A stretch of DNA of 64,000 nt, taken from IMG/VR virus record IMGVR_UViG_3300049460_000196, positions 49,104 through 113,103 of that record; one strand, written 5' to 3'. The notes below the pieces were generated by a model. The model made no database searches. It was not told the origin of the DNA and was given only the letters and a program-made list of their open reading frames with translations. Positions 5,374-53,732 of the stretch are shown here, piece by piece (the stretch's first letter is position 1; every line of letters begins with the position of its first letter). Source of the stretch: a virus. Both the position numbers and the translations under genes were made by a program.

Positions 5374-5436
5374 CTGCTACTCCGTGTTCGTTTATCTTGT
5401 TCCTATTATAGGCGTAGATGAACAAACAATCAAGTA

Positions 5437-5649
5437 TTAGTCACGTTTGTTTGCCAGTTCGTTCAACTGTTTGCTGAGGTCGGCGTCGGTTTCGGCGGTG
5501 ATCACGCCCAGCTTAACCATGTTGTTCATGGTACCACGATACACTTCAAACTCGCGGTTATCGAACGACTCAACCATCACGTGCTCGCGACCAGTGTCGC
5601 TGTCGAAGGTGTCGTAGTTGTGTTTGATCTGCGCGTTGATGATATACAT
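5437..5649 (-). CDS. Small hypothetical protein
   Basis: 70 residues, acidic. No family recognised. Its promoter region resembles that of 5140-5373 (both upstream areas contain TATAATAGG/TATAATG before AACA-type bases), suggesting separate similar promoters. Confidence 0.65.
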   Translation of the reverse strand: MYIINAQIKHNYDTFDSDTGREHVMVESFDNREFEVYRGTMNNMVKLGVITAETDADLSKQLNELANKRD

Positions 5650-5712
5650 GGTCGCTCCTGCATTTGTGTAGAATCACATTATAGACGCAGATGAACAGAA
5701 AATCAAGTAATA

Positions 5713-5812
5713 TTTGGTGGACCAGAGCGGAATTGAACCGCCACGACGTCGCGAACGTCTTTCCCAGTGCGGAGGACTTGTACTCACCTGAGTAGCCCAG
5801 CGAAGCACCAAT
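5713..5812 (-). tRNA. tRNA-like element, 3' half intact, 5' half unclear
   Basis: CCA, acceptor 3' strand CTGGTCC, T-arm GGCGG-type/CCGCT and an anticodon-like hairpin with loop TTCGCGA (CGC, Ala-like). No matching 5' acceptor strand (GGACCAG or wobble form) was found downstream, so the gene is either decayed or interrupted. Confidence 0.35.
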
Positions 5813-5823
5813 ACATGATGCTT

Positions 5824-5970
5824 TGGTGGACTATGGGGACTCGAACCCCCTCTCCCTGGCCCGTAATGATCAGCCTCGTGGGGCTTGTCCCACAATCTCC
5901 GCCATTAGATGTAGCGGTGCTGAATCACGCTTCTGAAGCTACTCGCTTGAAGCCGATCATTACGAGCGAC
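5824..5970 (-). other. tRNA-like 3' end joined to a structured element
   Basis: CCA, acceptor-like ATAGTCC and T-loop TTCGAGT in a G/C stem, but the T-stem has only four clean pairs and no 5' acceptor partner is seen. The region to about 5966 holds a 10-bp inverted repeat (CGTAATGATC at 5861 and its complement at 5957) and the hairpin GTGGG/CCCAC. Decayed tRNA or an unknown RNA. Confidence 0.3.
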
Positions 5971-10466: not shown

Positions 10467-10495
10467 AAGGGACGGGAAGAACTCCCGTCCCTTTT
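10467..10495 (-). terminator. Rho-independent terminator
   Basis: GGGACGGGA/TCCCGTCCC hairpin with flanking A/T runs, overlapping the stop of the HNH gene at 10494. Confidence 0.7.
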
Positions 10496-11063
10496 AGTTA
10501 CCTGGCAACAGGCGACTTTTCTTCTGCACACCAGCCAGCAAAAATTCCATCTGGTCAGCCAGGATGTTGCGGTTACGCATGATCAATCCTTCGTTACGGT
10601 CAGGTACGTATGGTACGTACAAGAGTGGCATTTTTGCTTCTTCAGGAGTACGGTCAGCTTTACGACTGTTGCATGGCTCGCAAGCCGCAACAATGTTCTG
10701 CCATGTGAATGGACCACCACGCGAGTCTGGCATGATGTGTTCCATGCGCAGGTCATCTTTATGGAACTGACCACCGCAGTAAGCACAGGTGTGACGGTCA
10801 CGAAGAACCAGAGCATCCTTGCTCAAAGCAATCGACAAGCGGTGACGCTGATCGCTCTTGCCCTTTACTGCGATAATGGTTGGCACTCGCATGGTGGACT
10901 GGTCACCATCACGATTGTGACCTCCGCGCAGAGTGATCTGCTCATCGCCCATTTCCCAAAGAATCTTACCCAGCGATTGCAGGTAAGCGTAGTGTTCAAT
11001 ATCTGACCACTGGGTTGGCGTACCATACGCATCCAGTGTCAATATCCGTATCCGATCCAACAT
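10494..11063 (-). CDS. HNH endonuclease
   Basis: 189 residues. Central HNH domain: CAYCGGQFHKDDLRMEHIMPDSRGG, then NIVAACEPCNSRKADRTPEEA, i.e. two CxxC zinc pairs around the E-H-I metal-binding motif, the layout of bacterial restriction-type and phage HNH proteins. Flanked by terminators on both sides, so it is an autonomous unit, as is common for free-standing homing endonucleases in phages. AGGAGG-type ribosome site upstream. Confidence 0.88.
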   Translation of the reverse strand: MLDRIRILTLDAYGTPTQWSDIEHYAYLQSLGKILWEMGDEQITLRGGHNRDGDQSTMRVPTIIAVKGKSDQRHRLSIALSKDALVLRDRHTCAYCGGQFHKDDLRMEHIMPDSRGGPFTWQNIVAACEPCNSRKADRTPEEAKMPLLYVPYVPDRNEGLIMRNRNILADQMEFLLAGVQKKSRLLPGN

Positions 11064-15139: not shown

Positions 15140-15192
15140 GTTCCTATTATAGGTTCATTTGAAACATGAATCAAGCAAAAGATGAAAATATT

Positions 15193-15271
15193 TGGTAGCT
15201 GTGGTCGGCCTCGAACCGACAGAACCCTTTGTTTTGAGCAAAGGAGGTATTCCAATTCCCTTCACACAGCC
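15193..15271 (-). tRNA. tRNA-Leu(CAA), third copy
   Basis: CCA, acceptor GGCTGTG/CACAGCT, T-arm GTCGG/CCGAC, loop CTCAAAA. Variable region only six bases, short for Leu, with the GGGAATTGGAATACC D-arm. Confidence 0.8.
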
Positions 15272-15277
15272 ATTGTT

Positions 15278-15352
15278 TGGTGGAGCTAGTGGGACTCGAA
15301 CCCACGACCTACGACATGCCATGCCGCCGCTCTCCCTCTGAGCTATAACCCC
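15278..15352 (-). tRNA. tRNA-Ala(GGC)
   Basis: CCA, acceptor GGGGTTA/TAGCTCC with G-T pairs, anticodon loop ATGGCAT. Confidence 0.88.
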
Positions 15353-15358
15353 ATTGTT

Positions 15359-15442
15359 TGGTCCCCTGGGCGAGATTCGAACTCGCAAAAGCCTGCCTTC
15401 TGACGACAGTAGGTGTACCAGATTTCCACTAGCCACCAGGGG
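15359..15442 (-). tRNA. tRNA-Leu(CAG)
   Basis: Class II, CCA, acceptor CCCCTGG-type pairing with CCAGGGG, loop GTCAGAA. Confidence 0.88.
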
Positions 15443-15451
15443 TAAAAATAC

Positions 15452-15624
15452 GTATTAGGGAAGGCAGGTTGGATTCAGGGATTGCCGCCCCTTGCACCAA
15501 CTTTCGGACTTGGCCCATTAGCCGCACAGACAGGGAACGTCGACTCCCCTATCCAGCATCCGACACTACCGTTCGACTTCCACATCAGTGCCTGTTCCTA
15601 CCAGGTTGCTGCCTTCTCTAATAC
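15452..15624 (-). ncRNA. Helix-closed RNA element with a 16S rRNA stretch
   Basis: About 173 nt bounded by complementary ends (GTATTAG, AAGGCAG and their complements). Inside, the minus strand reads CAGGC, ten bases, then AAGTCGAACGGTA (15567-15579), as in the E. coli 16S rRNA near helix 6 (CAGGC, eleven bases, AAGTCGAACGGTA). No reading frame. Candidate structured RNA of rRNA ancestry or mimicry. Confidence 0.5.
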
Positions 15625-15653
15625 ATACTTGGTATTTCATACTTGAAAAACTT

Positions 15654-15731
15654 TGGTGGATATGGGGAGACTCGAACTCCCACACGACGGTCTCTGAAAC
15701 CGCCAGGTATACCAATTCCCTTCACATATCC
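15654..15731 (-). tRNA. tRNA-Leu(CAG), second copy
   Basis: CCA, acceptor GGATATG/CATATCC, T-arm GGGAG/CTCCC, loop TTCAGAG. Variable loop short; shares the GGGAATTGGTATACC D-arm with other Leu tRNAs here. Confidence 0.8.
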
Positions 15732-15733
15732 TT

Positions 15734-15809
15734 TGGTGCTGTTAGTTGGACTCGAACCAACCACCTCATACCTACCAAGTATGTGCTCTGCCAGATGAGC
15801 TATAACAGC
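15734..15809 (-). tRNA. tRNA-Thr(GGT), second copy
   Basis: CCA, acceptor GCTGTTA/TAACAGC, anticodon stem CATAC/GTATG, loop TTGGTAG. Confidence 0.92.
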
Positions 15810-15810
15810 A

Positions 15811-15886
15811 TGGACCCACCAACACGACTCGAACGTGCGACCTCCTGAGTCGAAATCAGGCGCTCTTCCAACTGAGCTACGGTGGG
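15811..15886 (-). tRNA. tRNA-Arg(TCG)
   Basis: CCA, acceptor CCCACCG/TGGTGGG, anticodon stem CCTGA/TCAGG, loop TTTCGAC. One base from tRNA-Thr(GGT). Confidence 0.92.
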
Positions 15887-15887
15887 A

Positions 15888-16172
15888 TTAACTTTTGAAC
15901 ACGGAGTCTAACCACCAATGTGGGAACAAACCGTCCTCATACAACTCTTGCTTGAACAACGTGCCCAAGCACATATCCTCTTTCCACATTTTCACATGGA
16001 CATTCAGATACATTTTACCAACAGCATAACCATTATTGCCTGACACTGGTGTGCCAAATGATTCGCCGTTAAACAACTCCAACATAGCGTCATCGCTATG
16101 ATCTAACACATGATCCCAGTGACGAGAAAAGACTCTGTACACTTCGCACATGCGTTTGAACTTCTTACTCAC
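15888..16172 (-). CDS. Hypothetical protein
   Basis: 94 residues with a GTG start at 16172; the frame is open upstream for about 25 more codons (to about 16250), but no ATG is seen. A GGAGG site and ATG near 16226 lead into another frame that stops after 12 codons, so either the start is non-canonical or a frameshift is involved. No family recognised. Confidence 0.5.
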   Translation of the reverse strand: MSKKFKRMCEVYRVFSRHWDHVLDHSDDAMLELFNGESFGTPVSGNNGYAVGKMYLNVHVKMWKEDMCLGTLFKQELYEDGLFPHWWLDSVFKS

Positions 16173-17706: not shown

Positions 17707-17955
17707 ATTACTGTATTACTATCAAGTCGCGTGCTGCTACGCCAAAGGAGAGCTGCCCATACGCCGCCCAAGACGACTTTTGGCTACATGCTTCTATCAA
17801 CATTTATCCCTGCCACATCACCATTCTATACCACCACTAGGGTTCGGCATTATGGCATTTCGCGGCTCGGGTGCTTCGCTCCACTCATTAAGGATGGCTG
17901 CTTCTAAGCCAACCACAAGCTTGACTCAAGTACCTGACTGGCTGTCAGGATTTGG
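17707..17955 (-). ncRNA. RNA element with 23S GTPase-centre stretch
   Basis: About 250 nt without a convincing gene. The minus strand contains GACAGCCAG, a 22-nt insert, then TTGGCTTAGAAGCAGCCATC (17893-17912). Both occur in this order in E. coli 23S rRNA before and in helix 43 of the GTPase-associated centre, the L11/thiostrepton/EF-G site. The helix 44 sequence is not conserved. Further 3' it holds ATGCCGAAC and a 58-nt element closed by AAGTCG/CGACTT. Candidate rRNA-derived or mimicking RNA. Confidence 0.6.
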
Positions 17956-17960
17956 AGAAA

Positions 17961-18124: not shown

Positions 18125-18793
18125 TTACGGAAACTTCATCTTTCGACCAAGCTTCCAATTTCGAGAAAGCCACAAATCAATGTCTTCTCGATTTATCTTT
18201 ATCGTGCGCTTTTCTATTTCAGAAAATATCCACATAGTGCCATACTGCGAGTTACCAGTACCGCGTGCGCTTTTTGATACGTTATCTCCAATTTTCTTCT
18301 TGGTTTCTTCGGTATGATTTTTACCTTTAAAACTGGGAGGCGGCGTGCCTGGTAAATTGGCTATGCCTGCTGATGATCTATTGGTTTTTGTTTGTTTTGC
18401 CCATTCGGGGTCATTATCTCTCAACCATTGCTGCCTTTGTTGACTGATCTTATTCTTGGCAGTTTGACGACATGAATCGGCATTAATGATATTGTTAGGC
18501 CAACTGCTACCACCTAAAGATATGTTCATACACATCGGATCAGTTAGCATTTCGGCACACACCAATTCTGCTTCGCGTTCTCTCAACCACTCCCTACTGA
18601 AGTAATGCTCGAGAATCGCACATACGTGATTTTCCTTACCGTGAACATTAACTGATCGCCCAAGCAGTTTGCCAGAACCAATATAACCGTCATTCAGGTC
18701 ATAAGTGCTGTGCATACCCAAGTAATATTTTCCAGTCACAATGCACGTGGTGCGATATATGTAATGATACTGTCTGTTGGTCATATCCGCCAT
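18125..18793 (-). CDS. GIY-YIG homing endonuclease
   Basis: 222 residues. GIY-YIG core YHYIYRTTCIVTGKYYLGMHST, then DDGYIGSGKLL-type motif (DGYIGSG) and catalytic Glu in REREAELV; the NUMOD3 repeat FKGKNHTEETKKKIGDN follows near residue 160, and the C-terminus resembles a DNA-binding tail. Lies between two tRNA-His genes, ending 10 bases from one of them, as expected for an endonuclease that has homed into the tRNA array. Confidence 0.88.
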   Translation of the reverse strand: MADMTNRQYHYIYRTTCIVTGKYYLGMHSTYDLNDGYIGSGKLLGRSVNVHGKENHVCAILEHYFSREWLREREAELVCAEMLTDPMCMNISLGGSSWPNNIINADSCRQTAKNKISQQRQQWLRDNDPEWAKQTKTNRSSAGIANLPGTPPPSFKGKNHTEETKKKIGDNVSKSARGTGNSQYGTMWIFSEIEKRTIKINREDIDLWLSRNWKLGRKMKFP

Positions 18794-21180: not shown

Positions 21181-21534
21181 TTATCTTTTCTTGTTACCCC
21201 AGGTAGGGGTCTGTCTGTGGCAGTTTGGACACAGAAATCTCAAATTATCTGGATGATTGTTGGTCTTTACCCCATCCATATGGTCGATATCCAAACTAAG
21301 TGGTTTACCGCACCAGTCACTTACTGCACAACATGAACAGGCATAACCGTCGCGTTCCGTTAAGAACTTGATCATCGCCGGGCTATTATAATGAACAGCA
21401 CCTTGCAATATTTTCGGTTTGGTAACCGATATCCAGGTAAATGCGTGTTGGCATTTGTTCGAGCAGTATTTGCCATTAAATGCTGGCGGTTTATACTTTG
21501 TTGGTTTACCACAATTGATACATGATCTTTCCAT
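21181..21534 (-). CDS. HNH endonuclease with zinc finger
   Basis: 117 residues. N-terminal finger CINCGKPT...KYCSNKCQ; HNH core LSLDIDHMDGVKTNNHPDNLRFLCPNCH, with the D-H metal pair, central N and final CPNCH, as in phage HNH nucleases. It stops one base before tRNA-Val(GAC) and lies between the parts of the split tRNA-Phe. Confidence 0.88.
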   Translation of the reverse strand: MERSCINCGKPTKYKPPAFNGKYCSNKCQHAFTWISVTKPKILQGAVHYNSPAMIKFLTERDGYACSCCAVSDWCGKPLSLDIDHMDGVKTNNHPDNLRFLCPNCHRQTPTWGNKKR

Positions 21535-31996: not shown

Positions 31997-32272
31997 TCAG
32001 TTGTGGTTTGCCACACTAACCAGAACATGACGATTCAATATATCCATTAGTAAACCCACATACGAGCCATATTTTTGACGAGCATGGCTGTGGTTGATTG
32101 GATAGGCGCGATGAATCAAGCGCACATGGGCGCGATATTGTTCAGCACAGCAATGGCGGAAAATTTCCTTGCTGTCAGCCATAGTGACTCCTGGTATGTC
32201 GTCTCCGTTGTAGATTGCACGGAACAACAGCAGGATGCGATCGTCATATGGTGACGGCAGGTCAACGTTCAT
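31997..32272 (-). CDS. Hypothetical protein
   Basis: 91 residues; its ATG overlaps the stop of NAD kinase by 4 bases, implying translational coupling with that enzyme. Helical, His-rich tail; unknown function. Confidence 0.65.
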   Translation of the reverse strand: MNVDLPSPYDDRILLLFRAIYNGDDIPGVTMADSKEIFRHCCAEQYRAHVRLIHRAYPINHSHARQKYGSYVGLLMDILNRHVLVSVANHN

Positions 32273-33111
32273 TTATGATTCCAATGCAATTTTGTGGTCA
32301 GCAGGTCGAAGAAGTTCCACTCTGGGGCATGAAGGAGGGTGACTTTCTTTTCCAGGCGGTTCACTTCAACGGTATATTGGGTTGCATCGTCAGGCCAACA
32401 TTGCTCGATATTGACGCCGTCTGCCTTGATAGACAGGTCTCGGCCCGGCTTGCGCTTTACTTGGACCTTGATCGTATTCTTGCCACCTACCACCATAGGG
32501 CGAGCACTCATGCTCATTGCGGCCAAGTGTATGATTTCTACAACATCAAGATCTGGTTCAATTATAGCACCACCACTGAATAACGCATAAGCGGTCGATC
32601 CTGTCGGCGTGGAGATGATTACGCCGTTGCTTTTGTGATTGCCCGCATAAGAGTCGCCCACATGAAGATCGTAGTCCACGATCGAGTCGCTGTAACGGTC
32701 ACTAACCACGATTTCATTCATAGCCACATACTCTTTGCCGCAAATGTTCACGGTGAGCAGTGTGCGACGATCTCGCTTGAAAGCTTGTGGATTGCGCAGC
32801 CGTTCAAAGAACTTGTGCGAGTCTTCACGGTCAAGCGGCAACAGGTCAGTGAGGAAGCCCAAGTTGCCAATGTTCACGCCGATGATTGGAATATCCAGCT
32901 CGACTGCTTTCTTGGCTGCAACCAGAACCGTACCATCGCCGCCGATGGGGATCATGACGGTATGGGCTGAATCGGTTACTTGATCGAGATCGCGGATTAC
33001 TTGGAATCCATGAATCTTTGCATGACGTTCGAGGTCATCTGCAATGCGTAGCGAATCTTCGACGCGATTGCCGCCGACTTTTGTTTGTATCAGTATTGTG
33101 GTGAATGTCAT
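32269..33111 (-). CDS. nadK: NAD kinase
   Basis: 280 residues, normal family length. Catalyses ATP-dependent phosphorylation of NAD to NADP. Motifs: GGDGTVLVAAKKA (the GGDG ATP/catalytic loop, about 55), NIGNLGFLTDL, the NE/D pair (MNEIVV), and the substrate motif SNGVIISTPTGSTAYALFSGG. All key residues are present. Upstream terminator at 33123 isolates it from the preceding gene. With NadV and NadM-Nudix 1-4 kb away it extends the phage NAD salvage route to NADP. Confidence 0.95.
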   Translation of the reverse strand: MTFTTILIQTKVGGNRVEDSLRIADDLERHAKIHGFQVIRDLDQVTDSAHTVMIPIGGDGTVLVAAKKAVELDIPIIGVNIGNLGFLTDLLPLDREDSHKFFERLRNPQAFKRDRRTLLTVNICGKEYVAMNEIVVSDRYSDSIVDYDLHVGDSYAGNHKSNGVIISTPTGSTAYALFSGGAIIEPDLDVVEIIHLAAMSMSARPMVVGGKNTIKVQVKRKPGRDLSIKADGVNIEQCWPDDATQYTVEVNRLEKKVTLLHAPEWNFFDLLTTKLHWNHK

Positions 33112-33122
33112 GATGACCTCAT

Positions 33123-33159
33123 AAAAAATCCTTGTTCATTATAACACGAACAAGGATTT
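33123..33159 (-). terminator. Rho-independent terminator
   Basis: AAATCCTTGTTC/GAACAAGGATTT stem followed by TTTTTAT on the minus strand; ends the gene at 33174. Confidence 0.8.
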
Positions 33160-33173
33160 GGTTCAATGCCGTT

Positions 33174-33548
33174 TTACCAGTCCCAAGTCCAACGGCCAAT
33201 CAGTTCCAACATGGCTTCTTCCATACAGGCATTCACATCGTCTTGTGTGAACTTATGCTTACCTGAGTCTGCCTTATCTTGCAAGCGCTCTATGATGTCA
33301 TCAATGCTTTTGGATTGATGACGGTCGATATCAAAATCATCGTACGGCGAATCAAAGATACAGCTTGCATGGTTGAGTGGAACCTCGCTGTCGTCGACAT
33401 CACGCCGCCAGTCGTCTGGAGCCAGCAGGAAAGTGCGCCACCGTTCAGCGAGTGGATGATCTTTATTGGTGATGAAGGTGTACCAATCAGTCTTGATTGT
33501 TGAAGCAGATTTGACGTATTCGTGAATACGAGTTTCAATTTCGTTCAT
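33174..33548 (-). CDS. Hypothetical protein, paralogue of 33604-33975
   Basis: 124 residues: LAERWRTFLLAPDDWRRDVDDSEVPL, FDSPYDDFDID and a C-terminal ACMEEAML...WDW. The next gene has the same blocks (LDDRWEAFLAAPSDWRKKHSD; FDSPYDHFHMD). Each copy has its own terminator. No known family recognised. Confidence 0.72.
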   Translation of the reverse strand: MNEIETRIHEYVKSASTIKTDWYTFITNKDHPLAERWRTFLLAPDDWRRDVDDSEVPLNHASCIFDSPYDDFDIDRHQSKSIDDIIERLQDKADSGKHKFTQDDVNACMEEAMLELIGRWTWDW

Positions 33549-33571
33549 GTTATTGTTATTATGGTGAACGT

Positions 33572-33598
33572 TAAAAAGCCCGGACCAGCCGGGCGCTT
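33572..33598 (-). terminator. Rho-independent terminator
   Basis: GCCCGGCTGGTCCGGGC stem followed by TTTTTAAC on the minus strand; ends the gene at 33604. Confidence 0.8.
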
Positions 33599-33603
33599 AC
33601 GGG

Positions 33604-33975
33604 TTACTGATCGTAAAACCAGGAACCCAGATTCTTTTTGATTGCTTCTTCCTTGCAAGCGTTCAGTTCTATCTCCGTGAATTCGCCGTCTTCAACGAAC
33701 TCTTCCAGCTTGTCGAAAAGCTCTTTGACAGTCATGGTCTGTTCCAGGTCCATATGGAAGTGATCATACGGGCTGTCGAACTTCTTGTAGGCAGTTGGCA
33801 ATGGAACACCGCCGTCGCTGTGTTTTTTGCGCCAATCAGATGGTGCTGCCAGGAACGCTTCCCAACGATCATCCAGCGGTTGTTTCTTGTCGTTGATGAA
33901 CTTTGTCCAATCAGGGACAATAGTCTTGCTCAATGCCACGTAAGTGTTGATGCGTTCCAGAACAGTTTGGGTCAT
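33604..33975 (-). CDS. Hypothetical protein, paralogue of 33174-33548
   Basis: 123 residues; tandem duplicate of its neighbour with about half of residues shared in the W-R-x-F-L-A-P block and the FDSPYD block. Lies between NAD kinase and NadV; a role in that pathway is only a guess from position. Confidence 0.72.
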   Translation of the reverse strand: MTQTVLERINTYVALSKTIVPDWTKFINDKKQPLDDRWEAFLAAPSDWRKKHSDGGVPLPTAYKKFDSPYDHFHMDLEQTMTVKELFDKLEEFVEDGEFTEIELNACKEEAIKKNLGSWFYDQ

Positions 33976-33994
33976 GTTTTGCTTTCGATAGTCA

Positions 33995-34019
33995 CAAAAA
34001 GGGCCACTTGCGTGGCCCC
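33995..34019 (-). terminator. Rho-independent terminator
   Basis: GGGCCACGCAAGTGGCCC stem then TTTTTGTG on the minus strand; ends the NadV transcript. Confidence 0.85.
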
Positions 34020-34026
34020 CAAGGTA

Positions 34027-35601
34027 TTACTGATTTGCGCGAGCGCGGACTTCTTCCAGATCGTATTCTTTCAGGATTTGACCGTTGTACCACACGTCTT
34101 GCATGACTTCGGTGTGATCCTCGGTCATGTCTTCGATACGGATGGTCATGTACTCGCCGACCTTGCTTTGCACCACGGTCAAGCGACCTGCTTTGCTACG
34201 CTTACCCGAGTCGGTGATTGGATCCTTGAACACGTCGACCCATACGCCGTCAACTTCGGCCGCGCACGTCTTTTCAGCGAACTTGTAGGTATCGCGGTTG
34301 ACTTGTTGCAGCAGACCACCACCCTGACCGAAGACCATGTTTTCGATCGAGAAGCCGGCCGATTTCACTGCCATGCAAATGCGCTCGAAATCTTCAGGTT
34401 TCGACAAGCCGTCACCTTGCAGGATGCGGACAACGTTCAGGACTTTGTAGCCCTTGCTGTTGACCGTAACGCCGAAGCCTTCTTCGAAGATCTTCAGCAG
34501 TTCCAGGATGACCGTGACTGCGTCGCCGCTGTCTGGACGAACAACCAGCTTGATGCCTTTGTCCAGGATCTTTTGGCGCAGATCGCCTTTCGCGAATTCA
34601 CGTGCCAGGTTGAAGATGTCGTAGCCGTCGCTGACGATCGAGATCAACGTACCGACACCAAAGCGGCCGAATTCGTCGATGATGTCGTTCACGGTTTTCA
34701 GCTCGCCGTCACGACCACGCATGGTCATGATGCTGTGTTCAGTTGCGAACACGCTGTAGGCCGACATTTCGCTGTTGTAGTACGTGTTCGCGAACAGCGC
34801 ACCCGTGATAGTGTCGGTGCCCATTGCACCCGTTGCCAGGTGAGCGGCGCCGCCGATACCAGCCGATACGATGCTCGAAACGCCGCGGGCGCCGAAGTCG
34901 TGGAACATGAACGCAATTGCTTCAGCGATCGACAGATCCGAGGTTTCGCTGATGTACTTCTTCAGGATGTTACGAACGGTCATGGAACGCGACGCAACCG
35001 TCGTTGGGTACCAGACTGCACGCAGCATCGAGGTCTCGAAGTATGCGACCATCCAGGCGAGTTCTGGGTCGGTGCTTTCGATGGTGACCAGCGCATTGCG
35101 GGAGTCGATCACCATACCTTCTGGCAGAGCGCGGATGCGCAGTGGCAGGTGGCCGCCGTAGACGTTGACCACTTTTTCCCAGTCTGCGCGGGGGAAGATT
35201 TCTTTGCCGCCGATGATGTGCTTCTCGAAGAACGCTTCAGCCTGATCGATCATTTCCATGGTGATCGGGCGCAGACGTTTGATCCAGATTTGCAGACCGA
35301 AGAACAGCACTTTCTCCGCAAACGAACGCGGTTCGATGTAGCTGAACGCACCGGTCACGCCCAAACGGCCGTACATTGCTTGGTGGCACAGCTTGTACGA
35401 GTCAACGTCCAGGATGACGTTGTCTTCAGGCTTTTCGATCGTGCGGGGATCACCCAGCAGTTTCAGATCAGCCCACAGTTTAGCGCGACGGATGGAGTCG
35501 GCGATGAACTGGTCAGCTTGTGCTTTAGCGGCATCCAGGGTGGCTACCGATACGGCTTGTTTGGTATAGCTGGTTTCGATTACGTTGTCTTCAGTTTTCA
35601 T
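34027..35601 (-). CDS. nadV: Nicotinamide phosphoribosyltransferase (NadV/NAMPT)
   Basis: 524 residues, matching NAMPT length. Converts nicotinamide and PRPP to NMN, one-step NAD salvage. Motifs: NVILDVDSYKLCHQAMYG near the N-terminus (DxYKxxH), RGRDGELKTVNDI, HDFGARGVSS, the PRPP/nicotinamide signature IVSDGYDIFN and VVRPDSGDAVTVILE, and the glycine-rich FGQGGGLLQQVNRDTYKFAEK. Start at 35601 fits AGGAAT. The leader holds a hairpin shared with the NadM gene (35599-35650). Codon use is more GC-rich than flanking genes. Confidence 0.96.
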   Translation of the reverse strand: MKTEDNVIETSYTKQAVSVATLDAAKAQADQFIADSIRRAKLWADLKLLGDPRTIEKPEDNVILDVDSYKLCHQAMYGRLGVTGAFSYIEPRSFAEKVLFFGLQIWIKRLRPITMEMIDQAEAFFEKHIIGGKEIFPRADWEKVVNVYGGHLPLRIRALPEGMVIDSRNALVTIESTDPELAWMVAYFETSMLRAVWYPTTVASRSMTVRNILKKYISETSDLSIAEAIAFMFHDFGARGVSSIVSAGIGGAAHLATGAMGTDTITGALFANTYYNSEMSAYSVFATEHSIMTMRGRDGELKTVNDIIDEFGRFGVGTLISIVSDGYDIFNLAREFAKGDLRQKILDKGIKLVVRPDSGDAVTVILELLKIFEEGFGVTVNSKGYKVLNVVRILQGDGLSKPEDFERICMAVKSAGFSIENMVFGQGGGLLQQVNRDTYKFAEKTCAAEVDGVWVDVFKDPITDSGKRSKAGRLTVVQSKVGEYMTIRIEDMTEDHTEVMQDVWYNGQILKEYDLEEVRARANQ

Positions 35602-35650
35602 GATAATTCCTATCAATGTTAAAACCCGACTGGTCTATCCTGTCGGGGGT
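35599..35650 (-). promoter_or_regulatory. Structured 5' leader of nadV (candidate riboswitch or operator RNA)
   Basis: Hairpin CCCGAC/GTCGGG with loop AGGATAGACCA, followed 13 bases later by TGATA/TATCA holding the ribosome site GGAAT in its loop next to the ATG. The NadM leader at 36856-36905 has the same loop and second hairpin with compensatory stem changes. Confidence 0.6.
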
Positions 35651-35709
35651 GCTACGGTTTAAATTAATGCCATATTGTGGCGCAATGGCTTCTACGAGTC
35701 AAGCACTGA

Positions 35710-36858
35710 TTACTGATATTTTTTCAACTGGCTCAGTGCGTACAGGAGCATGTCGTAGTGATCTTCGAAGAACTGGATGCGCGACAGCATGTGAACAGGA
35801 ACCCAGATTGCTTCTTTGGCGTCGTCACTGCCTTTTACTTTAGGCAGACCTTTGCCATCGCTTGGCAGCACGATGATTTGTGCAGTAGTGATGACGCGAC
35901 CACGGCGGGAACGGTTGACGGCGTCGAAGACTTTTTCTTCCTTGATGCAGCCGCGAATCAGTGCTTCGGGCAGCTTGATCTTGGTTTCTTCGAACAGTTC
36001 ACGGATGCCGCATTCGAGCATGCTTGCATCAGCTTTGATCAGCTCGCCCTTCTTGTTCGTGTAGGTCTTGGCGTTGACGAATCCGCCTGGGAATGCCAAC
36101 AGGTTTTTGCCTGGATTGGACTTACGGCGGATCAGCAGGACGTGACCATCTTTGAACACGATTGCGTCGCCGGTGTTGAACGTGATCGGATATGGCAGGT
36201 GCTCGAATTGCTTGCGATAGTCCCGGATGTACTTGGCTTCGTCAACCACGTATTGGTAGTTGGTCGAAGTCAGGAAGCGTTCCAGGAAACGCGCAGTTGC
36301 GCTTGGTACAACACCTTTGAACAGGTTCAGATTGCACTTCGGGCTGAAGTACAGTTCGCGGATAGTGGTTGCATCCAGGATTTCCACCAGCGGCATTTCG
36401 ATCGGCTCGCCCCACTGCGGGAACATCTTCAGGTAGAAGCTCGAATCGTCTTTGCTGTGGCCGATCAACTTCACGTTGTCGCCGAGCAGCAGCGGCTGAA
36501 CTTGTGCTGCGACGTCCATGCCCCAGCCTGCATTGCTGTAACGTTGGTTTTCTACAGAGATGAACTTCAGGCGGTCGTCCAGATCATCGACTGGAATGTT
36601 GCGAGCGATGCATGCGTCGTGGATGCTTTCGCGGATCACTTCCATGCGTTCGTCTTGCGTGAACGGATTGTCTTCGTCACGCGGTTCGTTCGCAGAACCC
36701 ACTGCCACGATCACACGGTAGGCCAGCGTCATGGCGTGCATGATCGTTTCCAGGTGTGCATTATGGAATGGTTGGAAGCGGCCAATGTAGATGACCGTGT
36801 CATACGCATATTTGATAGCCTGCGCAATAGGCTTGAGGGTTGGTGCTGCGGTTGTCAT
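35710..36858 (-). CDS. nadM: Bifunctional NMN adenylyltransferase / Nudix hydrolase
   Basis: 382 residues from MTTAAPTLKP. N-terminal NadM-type adenylyltransferase: YIGRFQPFHNAHL (GxFxPxHxxH variant) about residue 25, later DATTIRELYF for the ISSTxIR motif. C-terminal Nudix domain about 215-375: AFPGGFVN then ECGIRELFEETKI (REUxEE core, with an insertion in the box). Known NadM-Nudix proteins make NAD from NMN and ATP; the Nudix half cleaves ADP-ribose or similar. Pairs with NadV upstream product NMN. Confidence 0.94.
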   Translation of the reverse strand: MTTAAPTLKPIAQAIKYAYDTVIYIGRFQPFHNAHLETIMHAMTLAYRVIVAVGSANEPRDEDNPFTQDERMEVIRESIHDACIARNIPVDDLDDRLKFISVENQRYSNAGWGMDVAAQVQPLLLGDNVKLIGHSKDDSSFYLKMFPQWGEPIEMPLVEILDATTIRELYFSPKCNLNLFKGVVPSATARFLERFLTSTNYQYVVDEAKYIRDYRKQFEHLPYPITFNTGDAIVFKDGHVLLIRRKSNPGKNLLAFPGGFVNAKTYTNKKGELIKADASMLECGIRELFEETKIKLPEALIRGCIKEEKVFDAVNRSRRGRVITTAQIIVLPSDGKGLPKVKGSDDAKEAIWVPVHMLSRIQFFEDHYDMLLYALSQLKKYQ

Positions 36859-36905
36859 GATAATTCCTATCAAGTTATGCTCAACTGGTCTATCCGGTCG
36901 AGGTA
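36856..36905 (-). promoter_or_regulatory. Structured 5' leader of nadM, matching the nadV leader
   Basis: Stem CTCGAC/GTTGAG with loop CGGATAGACCA, then TTGATAGGAATTATC before the ATG. Against the nadV leader the stem bases change while pairing is kept. Confidence 0.6.
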
Positions 36906-36964
36906 CTACTGGTGGGTTTATTGCCACACCGTCATGCTACTGGCTTCAGGCCAGTTACGCAAGA

Positions 36965-50538: not shown

Positions 50539-50548
50539 ATAAAACTTT

Positions 50549-50660
50549 AACGGAATAGCGTCATCTAAAGCCCGGGAGTCGAACCCTTATCGATGACTTG
50601 TCCCCATTGGACTAGGCTGGAAAGGTTGGCTCCATAAGTTGTTTGCTGAATCTATTCCAA
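50549..50660 (-). other. tRNA-like sequence inside an outer helix
   Basis: Outer ends GGAATAG/CTATTCC. Inside, a D-arm-like TAGTCCAATGGGGACA, then GGGTTCGACTCCC like a T-arm, and AGCC/GGCT as a short acceptor. Anticodon not identifiable. Decayed or unusual tRNA in an extended stem. Confidence 0.35.
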
Positions 50661-50671
50661 AACTTTACAAT

Positions 50672-50872
50672 TTACTTAAAGCTGAATCCCACAGTCGATG
50701 GTAAACGAATCCCATTCCTCCGATAGACTCGGTGCTCTGGCCGTCTGAGCTACTGCCACCTCAAAATTCCACCTTGCCGGATCACCCCACTGGGTTTACC
50801 GCGGAATTCCAATTATAAGTGTTGAGACCCATGCCTGCGTACTTAGCGGCAAGACCTTTCAGCTTTAAATAA
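50672..50872 (-). ncRNA. Helix-closed RNA element
   Basis: About 200 nt between TTTAAAGCTGA and its complement (50676 and 50860), with inner helix GGAATTCC/GGAATT at 50774-50815 and a tRNA 5'-half-like segment (GTGGCAGTAGCTCAG, 50740-50767). No gene. Candidate structured RNA next to the initiator-type tRNA. Confidence 0.35.
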
Positions 50873-50874
50873 AC

Positions 50875-52338: not shown

Positions 52339-52848
52339 TTAGCGAGTCACCGCATCAATCGTCGCCTGCGTCATATACGGGATGCCGTTCAGTGTGTAGG
52401 TGCAGCAAGTGCAACCAAAACACTCCTTGTTGATGTCGCCGGAGCAAAGGTCAGGCTTGACCTTCTGAAGCTTATTCTGGTCATCCACGTAGAGGCCACT
52501 GTAGTACGAAGTTTCACCAGCACGGAAGAACATTTCCCGATCTTCTTCACGGATGGCAACCATGTGGAAGATAGGGTCAGTGCGATCCAGACGTGACACT
52601 GCTTCGCTGTGAACAGCCGGCCAGTCTTGGCCCACATTGCTCAACAGGAAGCGATACAGTGGTGTATAGTCGAGGCCACGCTGCACGTTGCCGTTCATAC
52701 TACCCCGCGTCACACCTTCTTCCAAAAGACGCTTGGATGACTTGGTATGACGTTCATGACGATGCTCGCCACCGAAATCCAAATAGCTACCGCACCGACG
52801 AACACGTTTGTTCTCTTTGCGATACAGGGGTTCTTTAACTTTGTTCAT
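52339..52848 (-). CDS. Hypothetical protein with Cys cluster
   Basis: 169 residues: basic N-terminal quarter (RKENKRVRRCGSYLDFGGEHRHERHTKSSKRL), then alpha/beta, with LCSGDINKECFGCTCCTY near the end, a possible metal site. Overlaps the GluRS stop by 4 bases, hence coupled to it. A tRNA or RNA role is possible but unproven. Confidence 0.65.
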   Translation of the reverse strand: MNKVKEPLYRKENKRVRRCGSYLDFGGEHRHERHTKSSKRLLEEGVTRGSMNGNVQRGLDYTPLYRFLLSNVGQDWPAVHSEAVSRLDRTDPIFHMVAIREEDREMFFRAGETSYYSGLYVDDQNKLQKVKPDLCSGDINKECFGCTCCTYTLNGIPYMTQATIDAVTR

Positions 52849-53732
52849 CCTTGCTCCTTGGCTTTAGCGGCTTTGTACTTTTTGTCGTAGTGGGCCAGTT
52901 TGCTGAAGTCCACTTTGGAGTGAACGCCGCGCAGATTGCCGCCATCCAGGAACAGTTCCAGGGCACGATCACGGCCAATTATCGCAGCAGTTTTGTCATC
53001 GACCTTGGGCCCCCAGCCCAAGCGCAACAGGAAGTTCAGCATGGCGTCAGGATCGATGCCTTGATCCTGGTAGTCCAGAAGCGACGTGGCGCCGTCAGAC
53101 TTCGACAGTTTCTTGCCGGTCGTCAGATCGCACAACAGGCCCACGTGTGCGTAGTCAGGCAGACGAACTTGCGTACCTTCAGCAGCATGAATGGCTTCGT
53201 AGAGCGCTACTTGCTTCATGGTGTTGTTGGTGTGATCGTTGCCACGAATGATCATGTTGATGCCATGATCTATGTCGTCCACGACATTGGCGAAGTGATA
53301 GGTTGGCATGCCGTCGCTTTTGCGCAGCACCATGTTCTGGATGAAGTCGGTGTCGATCTTCGTGACCTTCACATTTTTCAACGCCCGGTCATCGAACGAG
53401 TCGCGTTCCAGCGAGTGCTTCAGGAACACCGCGCCGTCGCGGACTTCAGCCTTATCCGCCTTGACCATCATTTCCAGGCAGGTATTGTAACGATCCAGCC
53501 GGTCGCTTTGCTTGAACGTGTGGTCGAAGTTCAGTCCCAGGTAGTCCATGGCACGATAGATCACATCGATGTATTCCTGGGACGACTTTTCCGTGTTGGT
53601 GTCATCGATGCGCAGCAAGAAGGAACCGCCAGTTGCACGGGCAGCCAGCCAGTTAAAATAAGCCGTTCGAGCGGTTCCTAGATGGAAGTGCCCTGATGGA
53701 CTCGGTGCGATGCGCGTATGTTTACGATACAT
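52845..53732 (-). CDS. Truncated glutamyl-tRNA synthetase-like protein
   Basis: 295 residues. Class I catalytic core: RIAPSPSGHFHLGTARTAYFNWL with HFHLG as the HIGH motif, RIDDTNTEKS, VLRKSDGMPTYHFANVVDDIDHGI, IRGNDHTNNTMKQ, and GKKLSKSDGATSLLDY with KLSKS as KMSKS; then the stem-contact part AMLNFLLRLGWG. The anticodon-binding cage of GluRS (about 470 residues in bacteria) is missing. GluQ-RS has a similar size, but this retains the GltX-type KLSKSDGA and LLRLGW blocks. May charge Glu on an unusual tRNA or act on another acceptor (inference). Confidence 0.88.
   Translation of the reverse strand: MYRKHTRIAPSPSGHFHLGTARTAYFNWLAARATGGSFLLRIDDTNTEKSSQEYIDVIYRAMDYLGLNFDHTFKQSDRLDRYNTCLEMMVKADKAEVRDGAVFLKHSLERDSFDDRALKNVKVTKIDTDFIQNMVLRKSDGMPTYHFANVVDDIDHGINMIIRGNDHTNNTMKQVALYEAIHAAEGTQVRLPDYAHVGLLCDLTTGKKLSKSDGATSLLDYQDQGIDPDAMLNFLLRLGWGPKVDDKTAAIIGRDRALELFLDGGNLRGVHSKVDFSKLAHYDKKYKAAKAKEQG

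What the first reader, a model, noticed from the sequence alone, without database searches (positions are those of the whole stretch)
15567..15579. 16S rRNA helix 6 stretch inside a helix-closed element
The minus strand has CAGGC, 10 nt, AAGTCGAACGGTA; E. coli 16S has CAGGC, 11 nt, AAGTCGAACGGTA near position 60. The 173-nt element is bounded by complementary ends like a processed RNA and lies in the tRNA array. Together with the 23S match it points to a set of rRNA-derived elements.
Basis: partly seen in the sequence, partly recalled or inferred. Interest (0 to 1): 0.8.

Follow-up and report, generated by a model that had tools for sequence, protein, structure and literature searches.

The report
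New structured RNA in phage tRNA array
Between two tRNA genes this phage encodes a small, intricately folded non-coding RNA that also occurs in a distantly related phage; its 13-letter likeness to bacterial 16S ribosomal RNA is a coincidence, but a neighbouring RNA in the same gene cluster really does copy part of the 23S ribosomal RNA.

Summary
The 13-mer AAGTCGAACGGTA is at 15567-15579 (-), as stated, inside a helix-closed 185-nt element (15446-15630) between tRNA-Leu and tRNA-Arg. The 16S reading fails. Two 16S 13-mers occur in the window and shuffles give 2.0; no SSU model matches; nothing beyond 15 of 16 letters aligns. The element itself is real. A covariance model built from it alone finds one full-length homologue (E about 4e-22), again in a tRNA array, in another IMG/VR phage contig (209 kb). 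22 of 53 predicted pairs change on both sides and still pair; slid controls give 1-3. Two 1-nt length differences argue against coding. The 16S-like 13-mer is not kept in the homologue. Its GUCGA core is predicted to kiss a second hairpin loop, with one compensatory change. No Rfam family matches. Best reading: a new orphan phage non-coding RNA, co-transcribed with the tRNAs and released by their processing; its molecular target is unknown. About 60 distinct viral loci, including unannotated gaps of several named phages, have both halves of it. That 23S mimic is the more striking discovery.

The parts
15446..15630 (-). Whole structured RNA element, 185 nt, closed by a 21-bp helix with one bulge
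   Evidence: Fold z -4.8; homologue and covariation
15459..15617 (-). Core used for covariance models R1 and R2 (159 nt)
15618..15630 (-). Outer P1, 5' strand (AAGTATGTATTAG), pairs with 15446-15458
   Evidence: not conserved in the G020 homologue, whose closing helix is about 9 bp
15609..15616 (-). Inner P1, 5' strand (GAAGGCAG); GCAG kept in both members
   Evidence: 4 of 8 pairs with changes on both sides
15591..15605 (-). P2 hairpin CCUG-GUAGGAA-CAGG; CUGGUAGGAACAG identical in both members, the most conserved stretch
15564..15590 (-). P3 hairpin; its apical loop carries the reported 16S-like 13-mer
   Evidence: 3 of 8 pairs with changes on both sides
15567..15579 (-). The reported 13-mer AAGTCGAACGGTA; chance identity with 16S 59-71
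15573..15577 (-). GUCGA of the P3 loop: proposed kissing strand 1
   Evidence: 5 Watson-Crick pairs in both members, one compensatory change
15539..15543 (-). UCGAC of the P4a loop: proposed kissing strand 2
15504..15563 (-). P4 domain with hairpins P4a (15524-15557) and P4b
   Evidence: covariation in both arms
15468..15501 (-). P5 hairpin with internal loop UGCA opposite GAAU
   Evidence: 5 of 10 pairs with changes on both sides
15460..15467 (-). Inner P1, 3' strand (CTGCCTTC)
15446..15458 (-). Outer P1, 3' strand, ending 3 nt before tRNA-Arg
15654..15731 (-). Upstream tRNA-Leu(CAG)
   Evidence: ARAGORN and Rfam
15359..15442 (-). Downstream tRNA-Arg(CCT); RNase P cleavage here would cut about 3 nt past the element
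   Evidence: ARAGORN
17707..17960 (-). Sister element in the same array: split mimic of the 23S GTPase-associated centre; H43 copy 17893-17913, H44-like piece 17729-17743

Best explanation
The element is a small structured non-coding RNA of a tRNA-rich phage, unrelated to 16S rRNA. Shown by sequence comparison: it folds into a multi-helix junction (P1 closing helix; P2 hairpin with invariant GUAGGAA loop; P3; P4 with arms P4a and P4b; P5). The same fold with many compensatory changes exists in a distant tRNA-array phage, and the P3 and P4a loops are complementary in both. Inferred: it is transcribed with the tRNAs (no promoter or terminator of its own was seen). It is released when the tRNA-processing enzymes cut at its neighbours, because in one phage it ends 3 nt before a tRNA and in the other starts 1 nt after one. 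It then persists as a stable RNA that acts in trans during infection, most likely by presenting the invariant P2 hairpin and the locked P3-P4a face to a host translation or RNA-handling protein. The last step is a commitment without direct evidence; I give it about 0.4. The overall confidence below is for a conserved, processed, structured phage ncRNA that is not 16S-derived.
For: Fold z -4.8, none of 200 shuffles as stable. A single-sequence model R1 finds a full-length homologue at 100.9 bits, E 3.6e-22, among 50 phage records. Between the two, 97% of cells pair, 22 of 53 pairs differ on both sides, slid controls 1-3. The homologue folds independently into the same architecture. Loop-loop contact GUCGA/UCGAC versus GUCGC/GCGAC; shuffled loops reach 5 pairs in 0.5%. 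Internal 1-nt gaps in the alignment speak against a coding sequence. Position 3 nt from tRNA-Arg here and 1 nt after tRNA-Pro in the homologue. No promoter-like or terminator-like site in 15150-16000. No Rfam match for either member. 16S similarity at chance level.
Against: Only two members are known, so the covariation rests on one pairwise comparison, made on an alignment fitted to the model. Closer relatives (G001, G003) and about 130 other phage records give no match, so it is rare or patchy; those records may be fragments and the CM searches use filters. No transcript or processing data. The homologue's own folding z-score is modest (-1.9).
Confidence: 0.85

Rival explanations
1. 16S helix 6 derived mimic: a fragment of small-subunit rRNA kept as a decoy or scaffold.
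For: Exact 13-mer, 15 of 16 letters, and CAGGC at nearly the same spacing. A real 23S mimic sits 2 kb away.
Against: Number of 16S 13-mers equals the shuffle mean; no SSU match; 13-mer not conserved in the only homologue; the region lies in a hairpin loop predicted to kiss another loop; the conserved columns of the pair match rRNA no better than column shuffles.
Confidence: 0.03
2. A cis-acting structured spacer: the hairpin domain separates and exposes the flanking tRNAs for processing and is then degraded, with no role of its own.
For: Sits flush against tRNA ends in both phages.
Against: A spacer would not need an invariant CUGGUAGGAACAG hairpin, a conserved junction or a loop-loop contact. 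Flanking tRNAs differ between the phages (Leu/Arg versus Pro/Ile). Most other tRNA gaps have no such structure.
Confidence: 0.1
3. A structural, not sequence-level, mimic of some ribosomal RNA domain or other host RNA, acting as a decoy for its binding protein, in parallel with the 23S mimic in the same array.
For: Both phages with this element also carry the 23S mimic, and RNA decoys for ribosomal proteins are plausible in translation takeover.
Against: No sequence support above null against E. coli 16S, 23S and 5S. Co-occurrence is biased, because most records searched were chosen for carrying the 23S mimic.
Confidence: 0.12
4. A remnant of a selfish or catalytic RNA (intron or self-cleaving ribozyme) lodged in the tRNA array.
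For: The array is full of homing-endonuclease-like genes.
Against: No Rfam intron or ribozyme model matches even at E 10. It lies between, not inside, tRNA genes.
Confidence: 0.05

Closest known systems
T4 stable RNAs C and D (species 1 and 2; 139 and 119 nt)
   Same: Small non-coding RNAs inside a phage tRNA cluster, next to tRNA ends; function unknown as far as I know.
   Different: Model R2 finds nothing in the T4 tRNA region; no shared motif seen.
GOLLD and ROOL RNAs
   Same: Structured RNAs of phages and prophages, often near tRNA islands, function unknown (PMC12286853).
   Different: GOLLD often exceeds 800 nt and both form nanocages (PMC12286853); this one is 185 nt and matches no Rfam model.
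Split 23S GTPase-associated-centre RNAs of tRNA-rich phages (seen here, not found described)
   Same: Same arrays, closed by a helix; both phages with the element carry one.
   Different: Those carry H43 and H44 of 23S; this element carries neither and shows no rRNA similarity above chance.

Membership tests
Bacterial 16S rRNA (SSU), helix 6 region | Match to an SSU covariance model | tested here: not met
   cmscan gathering and E up to 10: no SSU hit
Bacterial 16S rRNA (SSU), helix 6 region | Alignment extending beyond the 13-mer | tested here: not met
   Best local alignment is 15 of 16 nt; 54/400 shuffles as good
Bacterial 16S rRNA (SSU), helix 6 region | The shared stretch is conserved in homologues of the element | tested here: not met
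   Homologue has GAGGUCGCCAAGC instead
23S GTPase-associated-centre mimic | H43 (GUUGGCYUARAAGCAGCCAUC) and H44-like GGCGUA..AGCA halves | tested here: not met
   Absent from 15446-15630; present in the sister element 17707-17960
GOLLD / ROOL | Match to an Rfam family model | tested here: not met
   No Rfam match at E up to 10 for either member
T4 stable RNA C/D | Homology to T4 rnaC or rnaD | tested here: not met
   R2 over the T4 tRNA region: no match
Phage structured ncRNA of tRNA arrays (broad kind) | Conserved base-paired structure between phages | tested here: met
   22 of 53 pairs change on both sides between two members
Phage structured ncRNA of tRNA arrays (broad kind) | Accumulates as a discrete RNA during infection | not testable with these tools
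   No expression data

The most novel reading that the evidence does not exclude
The element and the neighbouring split 23S GTPase-centre RNA are parts of one phage RNA toolkit, encoded among the tRNAs, that acts on the host translation machinery: one copies the L11/elongation-factor site of 23S, the other engages a second, unidentified translation component.
Probability: 0.2. Interest if true: 0.9.

Novelty: new member of a known kind. Interest (0 to 1): 0.5.

Why it matters
Stable RNAs of unknown function in phage tRNA clusters have been known since T4. This is a new one with a covariation-supported fold and a testable loop-loop contact, so its structure and partner can be pursued. It also separates chance from signal: one array holds a false rRNA match (16S) and a true one (23S GTPase-associated centre). 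The true one belongs to a widespread group of RNAs for which I found no description, and would make phage mimicry of the ribosome directly testable.

Tried and rejected
16S identity. A 530-loop (helix 18) resemblance of GCAGCA..CUGGUAGGAAC, noticed by eye, dropped after the joint test showed nothing above null. RNase P, SRP, 5S: by-eye motif ideas; no Rfam support. blastn of the element in INPHARED phages: none; blastn in relatives G001, G002, G003: only chance-level hits. DNA patterns for conserved stretches in IMG/VR and GTDB genomes: only the known homologue and coding or chance matches after CM scoring. Xanthomonas phage LucasX R2 hit (18 bits) lies antisense in an ordinary intergenic stretch; judged chance. 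T4 RNA C/D: no homology. Paenibacillus phage Pd_22F H43 hit shows no mimic 3' half and looks like an ordinary 23S sequence; not counted as a mimic.

Full report
What was claimed.

Check of the observation. The letters are there and equal E. coli 16S 59-71. The window is bases 49104-113103 of a 113-kb IMG/VR phage contig with over 50 tRNA genes. The element is best delimited as 15446-15630, between tRNA-Leu(CAG) and tRNA-Arg(CCT). Its fold is far more stable than shuffles (-81.3 against -60 kcal/mol, z -4.8).

Is the 16S match more than chance? No. The window has two independent 13-mers in common with 16S, and shuffled windows have 2.0 on average. The best local alignment to 16S is 15 of 16 letters and 54 of 400 shuffles of the element do as well. 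Within this element alone a shared 13-mer is rare (0.4% of shuffles), but the choice of place was made after the fact. No SSU model matches. By contrast the 23S match at 17893-17913 is exceeded by no shuffle against 23S, and by 2 of 400 against all three rRNAs.

Is the element conserved? Plain BLAST found nothing. A covariance model made from the element alone, run over 50 phage records, found one strong full-length homologue: contig IMGVR_UViG_3300034196_000067, 209 kb, bases 115304-115460, 100.9 bits, E 3.6e-22. It lies in that phage's tRNA array, 1 nt after tRNA-Pro. In the 35 kb of that contig that I fetched, only two window ORFs had a match, at 29-38% identity, so kinship looks remote. 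Of 53 predicted pairs 22 differ on both sides and still pair, 97% of cells pair, and sliding the partner by 1-3 columns leaves 1-3 such pairs. The homologue folds by itself into the same architecture. Internal 1-nt length differences speak against coding. The invariant core is GCAGCA..CUGGUAGGAACAG.CAC near the 5' end and GGUGCA...GGC.GCAA near the 3' end.

What the 13-mer really is. In the homologue the 13-mer is GAGGUCGCCAAGC. The part kept, GUCG, lies in the P3 loop and is complementary to the P4a loop: GUCGA/UCGAC here, GUCGC/GCGAC there, five Watson-Crick pairs with one compensatory change. Shuffled loops reach five pairs in 0.5% of trials and no other loop pair in the element exceeds three. 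So the stretch is best explained as one side of a kissing-loop contact.

How far the family reaches. About 140 phage records were searched by CM, and IMG/VR and GTDB by three and one DNA patterns. Only the two members were found. The closest relatives of this phage (G001, 74% identical NadV; G003) lack it. The family is rare, patchy, or diverges beyond these searches.

How it most likely works. No promoter or terminator of its own was seen. It ends 3 nt before a tRNA here and begins 1 nt after one there, so tRNA 3' processing and RNase P would release it (inference from known tRNA maturation). I infer a stable trans-acting RNA that presents the invariant P2 hairpin and the locked P3-P4a face to a host translation or RNA-handling protein; this last step is unsupported by direct evidence.

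The sister element. Window 17707-17960 carries GUUGGCUUAGAAGCAGCCAUC (23S 1059-1079, helix 43 of the L11/GTPase-associated centre) and further on GGCGUAGCAGCACGC (helix 44-like). A scan of IMG/VR for H43 gave 95 stretches, nearly all without longer rRNA similarity. 60 distinct loci have both halves with a 65-379 nt insert between them. The flanks form a closing helix: mean 10.2 bp in 55 non-redundant loci, 5.8 bp when partners are swapped. Both halves with such a helix were seen in the named phages XacN1, GAP32, Astolliot and 4_4572, in stretches without annotation. XaC1, ME3, Kaldavass, XbC2, Serratia phage BF and Erwinia phages give one-half BLAST hits that I did not confirm further. Rfam's LSU model sees only a sub-threshold trace. 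Literature searches found no description.

Caveats. Two members only; the alignment was fitted to the model; the records searched were mostly chosen for carrying the 23S mimic, so the co-occurrence of the two elements is not an independent finding; no expression data.

Noticed in passing
window 17707-17960 (-); L018:12505-12825; L042-L136; L154, L158, L160, L161: Split mimic of the 23S GTPase-associated centre: H43 and H44-like halves around a variable insert, closed by a covarying helix; about 60 distinct viral loci and unannotated gaps of XacN1, GAP32, Astolliot and 4_4572. Looks like an undescribed, widespread phage RNA family.
   Followed up: partly
window 50539-50874 (-): Helix-closed region of about 205 nt between tRNA-Cys and tRNA-Met with a 17-bp closing helix and a tRNA-like 5' half inside.
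   Followed up: no
window 5435-5914 (-): ARAGORN calls a permuted tmRNA with tag ASLKCIVVP; Rfam does not support it.
   Followed up: no
window 32269-36927 (-): NAD+ cluster: an ORF I read as NAD kinase (only an unknown-function PHROG matched), NadV, and a NadM-Nudix fusion.
   Followed up: partly
window 52845-53732 (-): ORF that reads like a short glutamyl/glutaminyl-tRNA synthetase; PHROGs give only unknown-function families.
   Followed up: no
window 18125-18793, 10494-11063, 21181-21534 (-): Homing-endonuclease-like ORFs among the tRNAs; the first matches a PHROG homing endonuclease, the other two judged by eye as HNH.
   Followed up: no
L044:6690-7067 and L086:3745-4000: Other helix-closed, stable, non-GAC elements between tRNAs in other phages (25-bp and 12-bp closing helices), possibly further array RNAs.
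   Followed up: no
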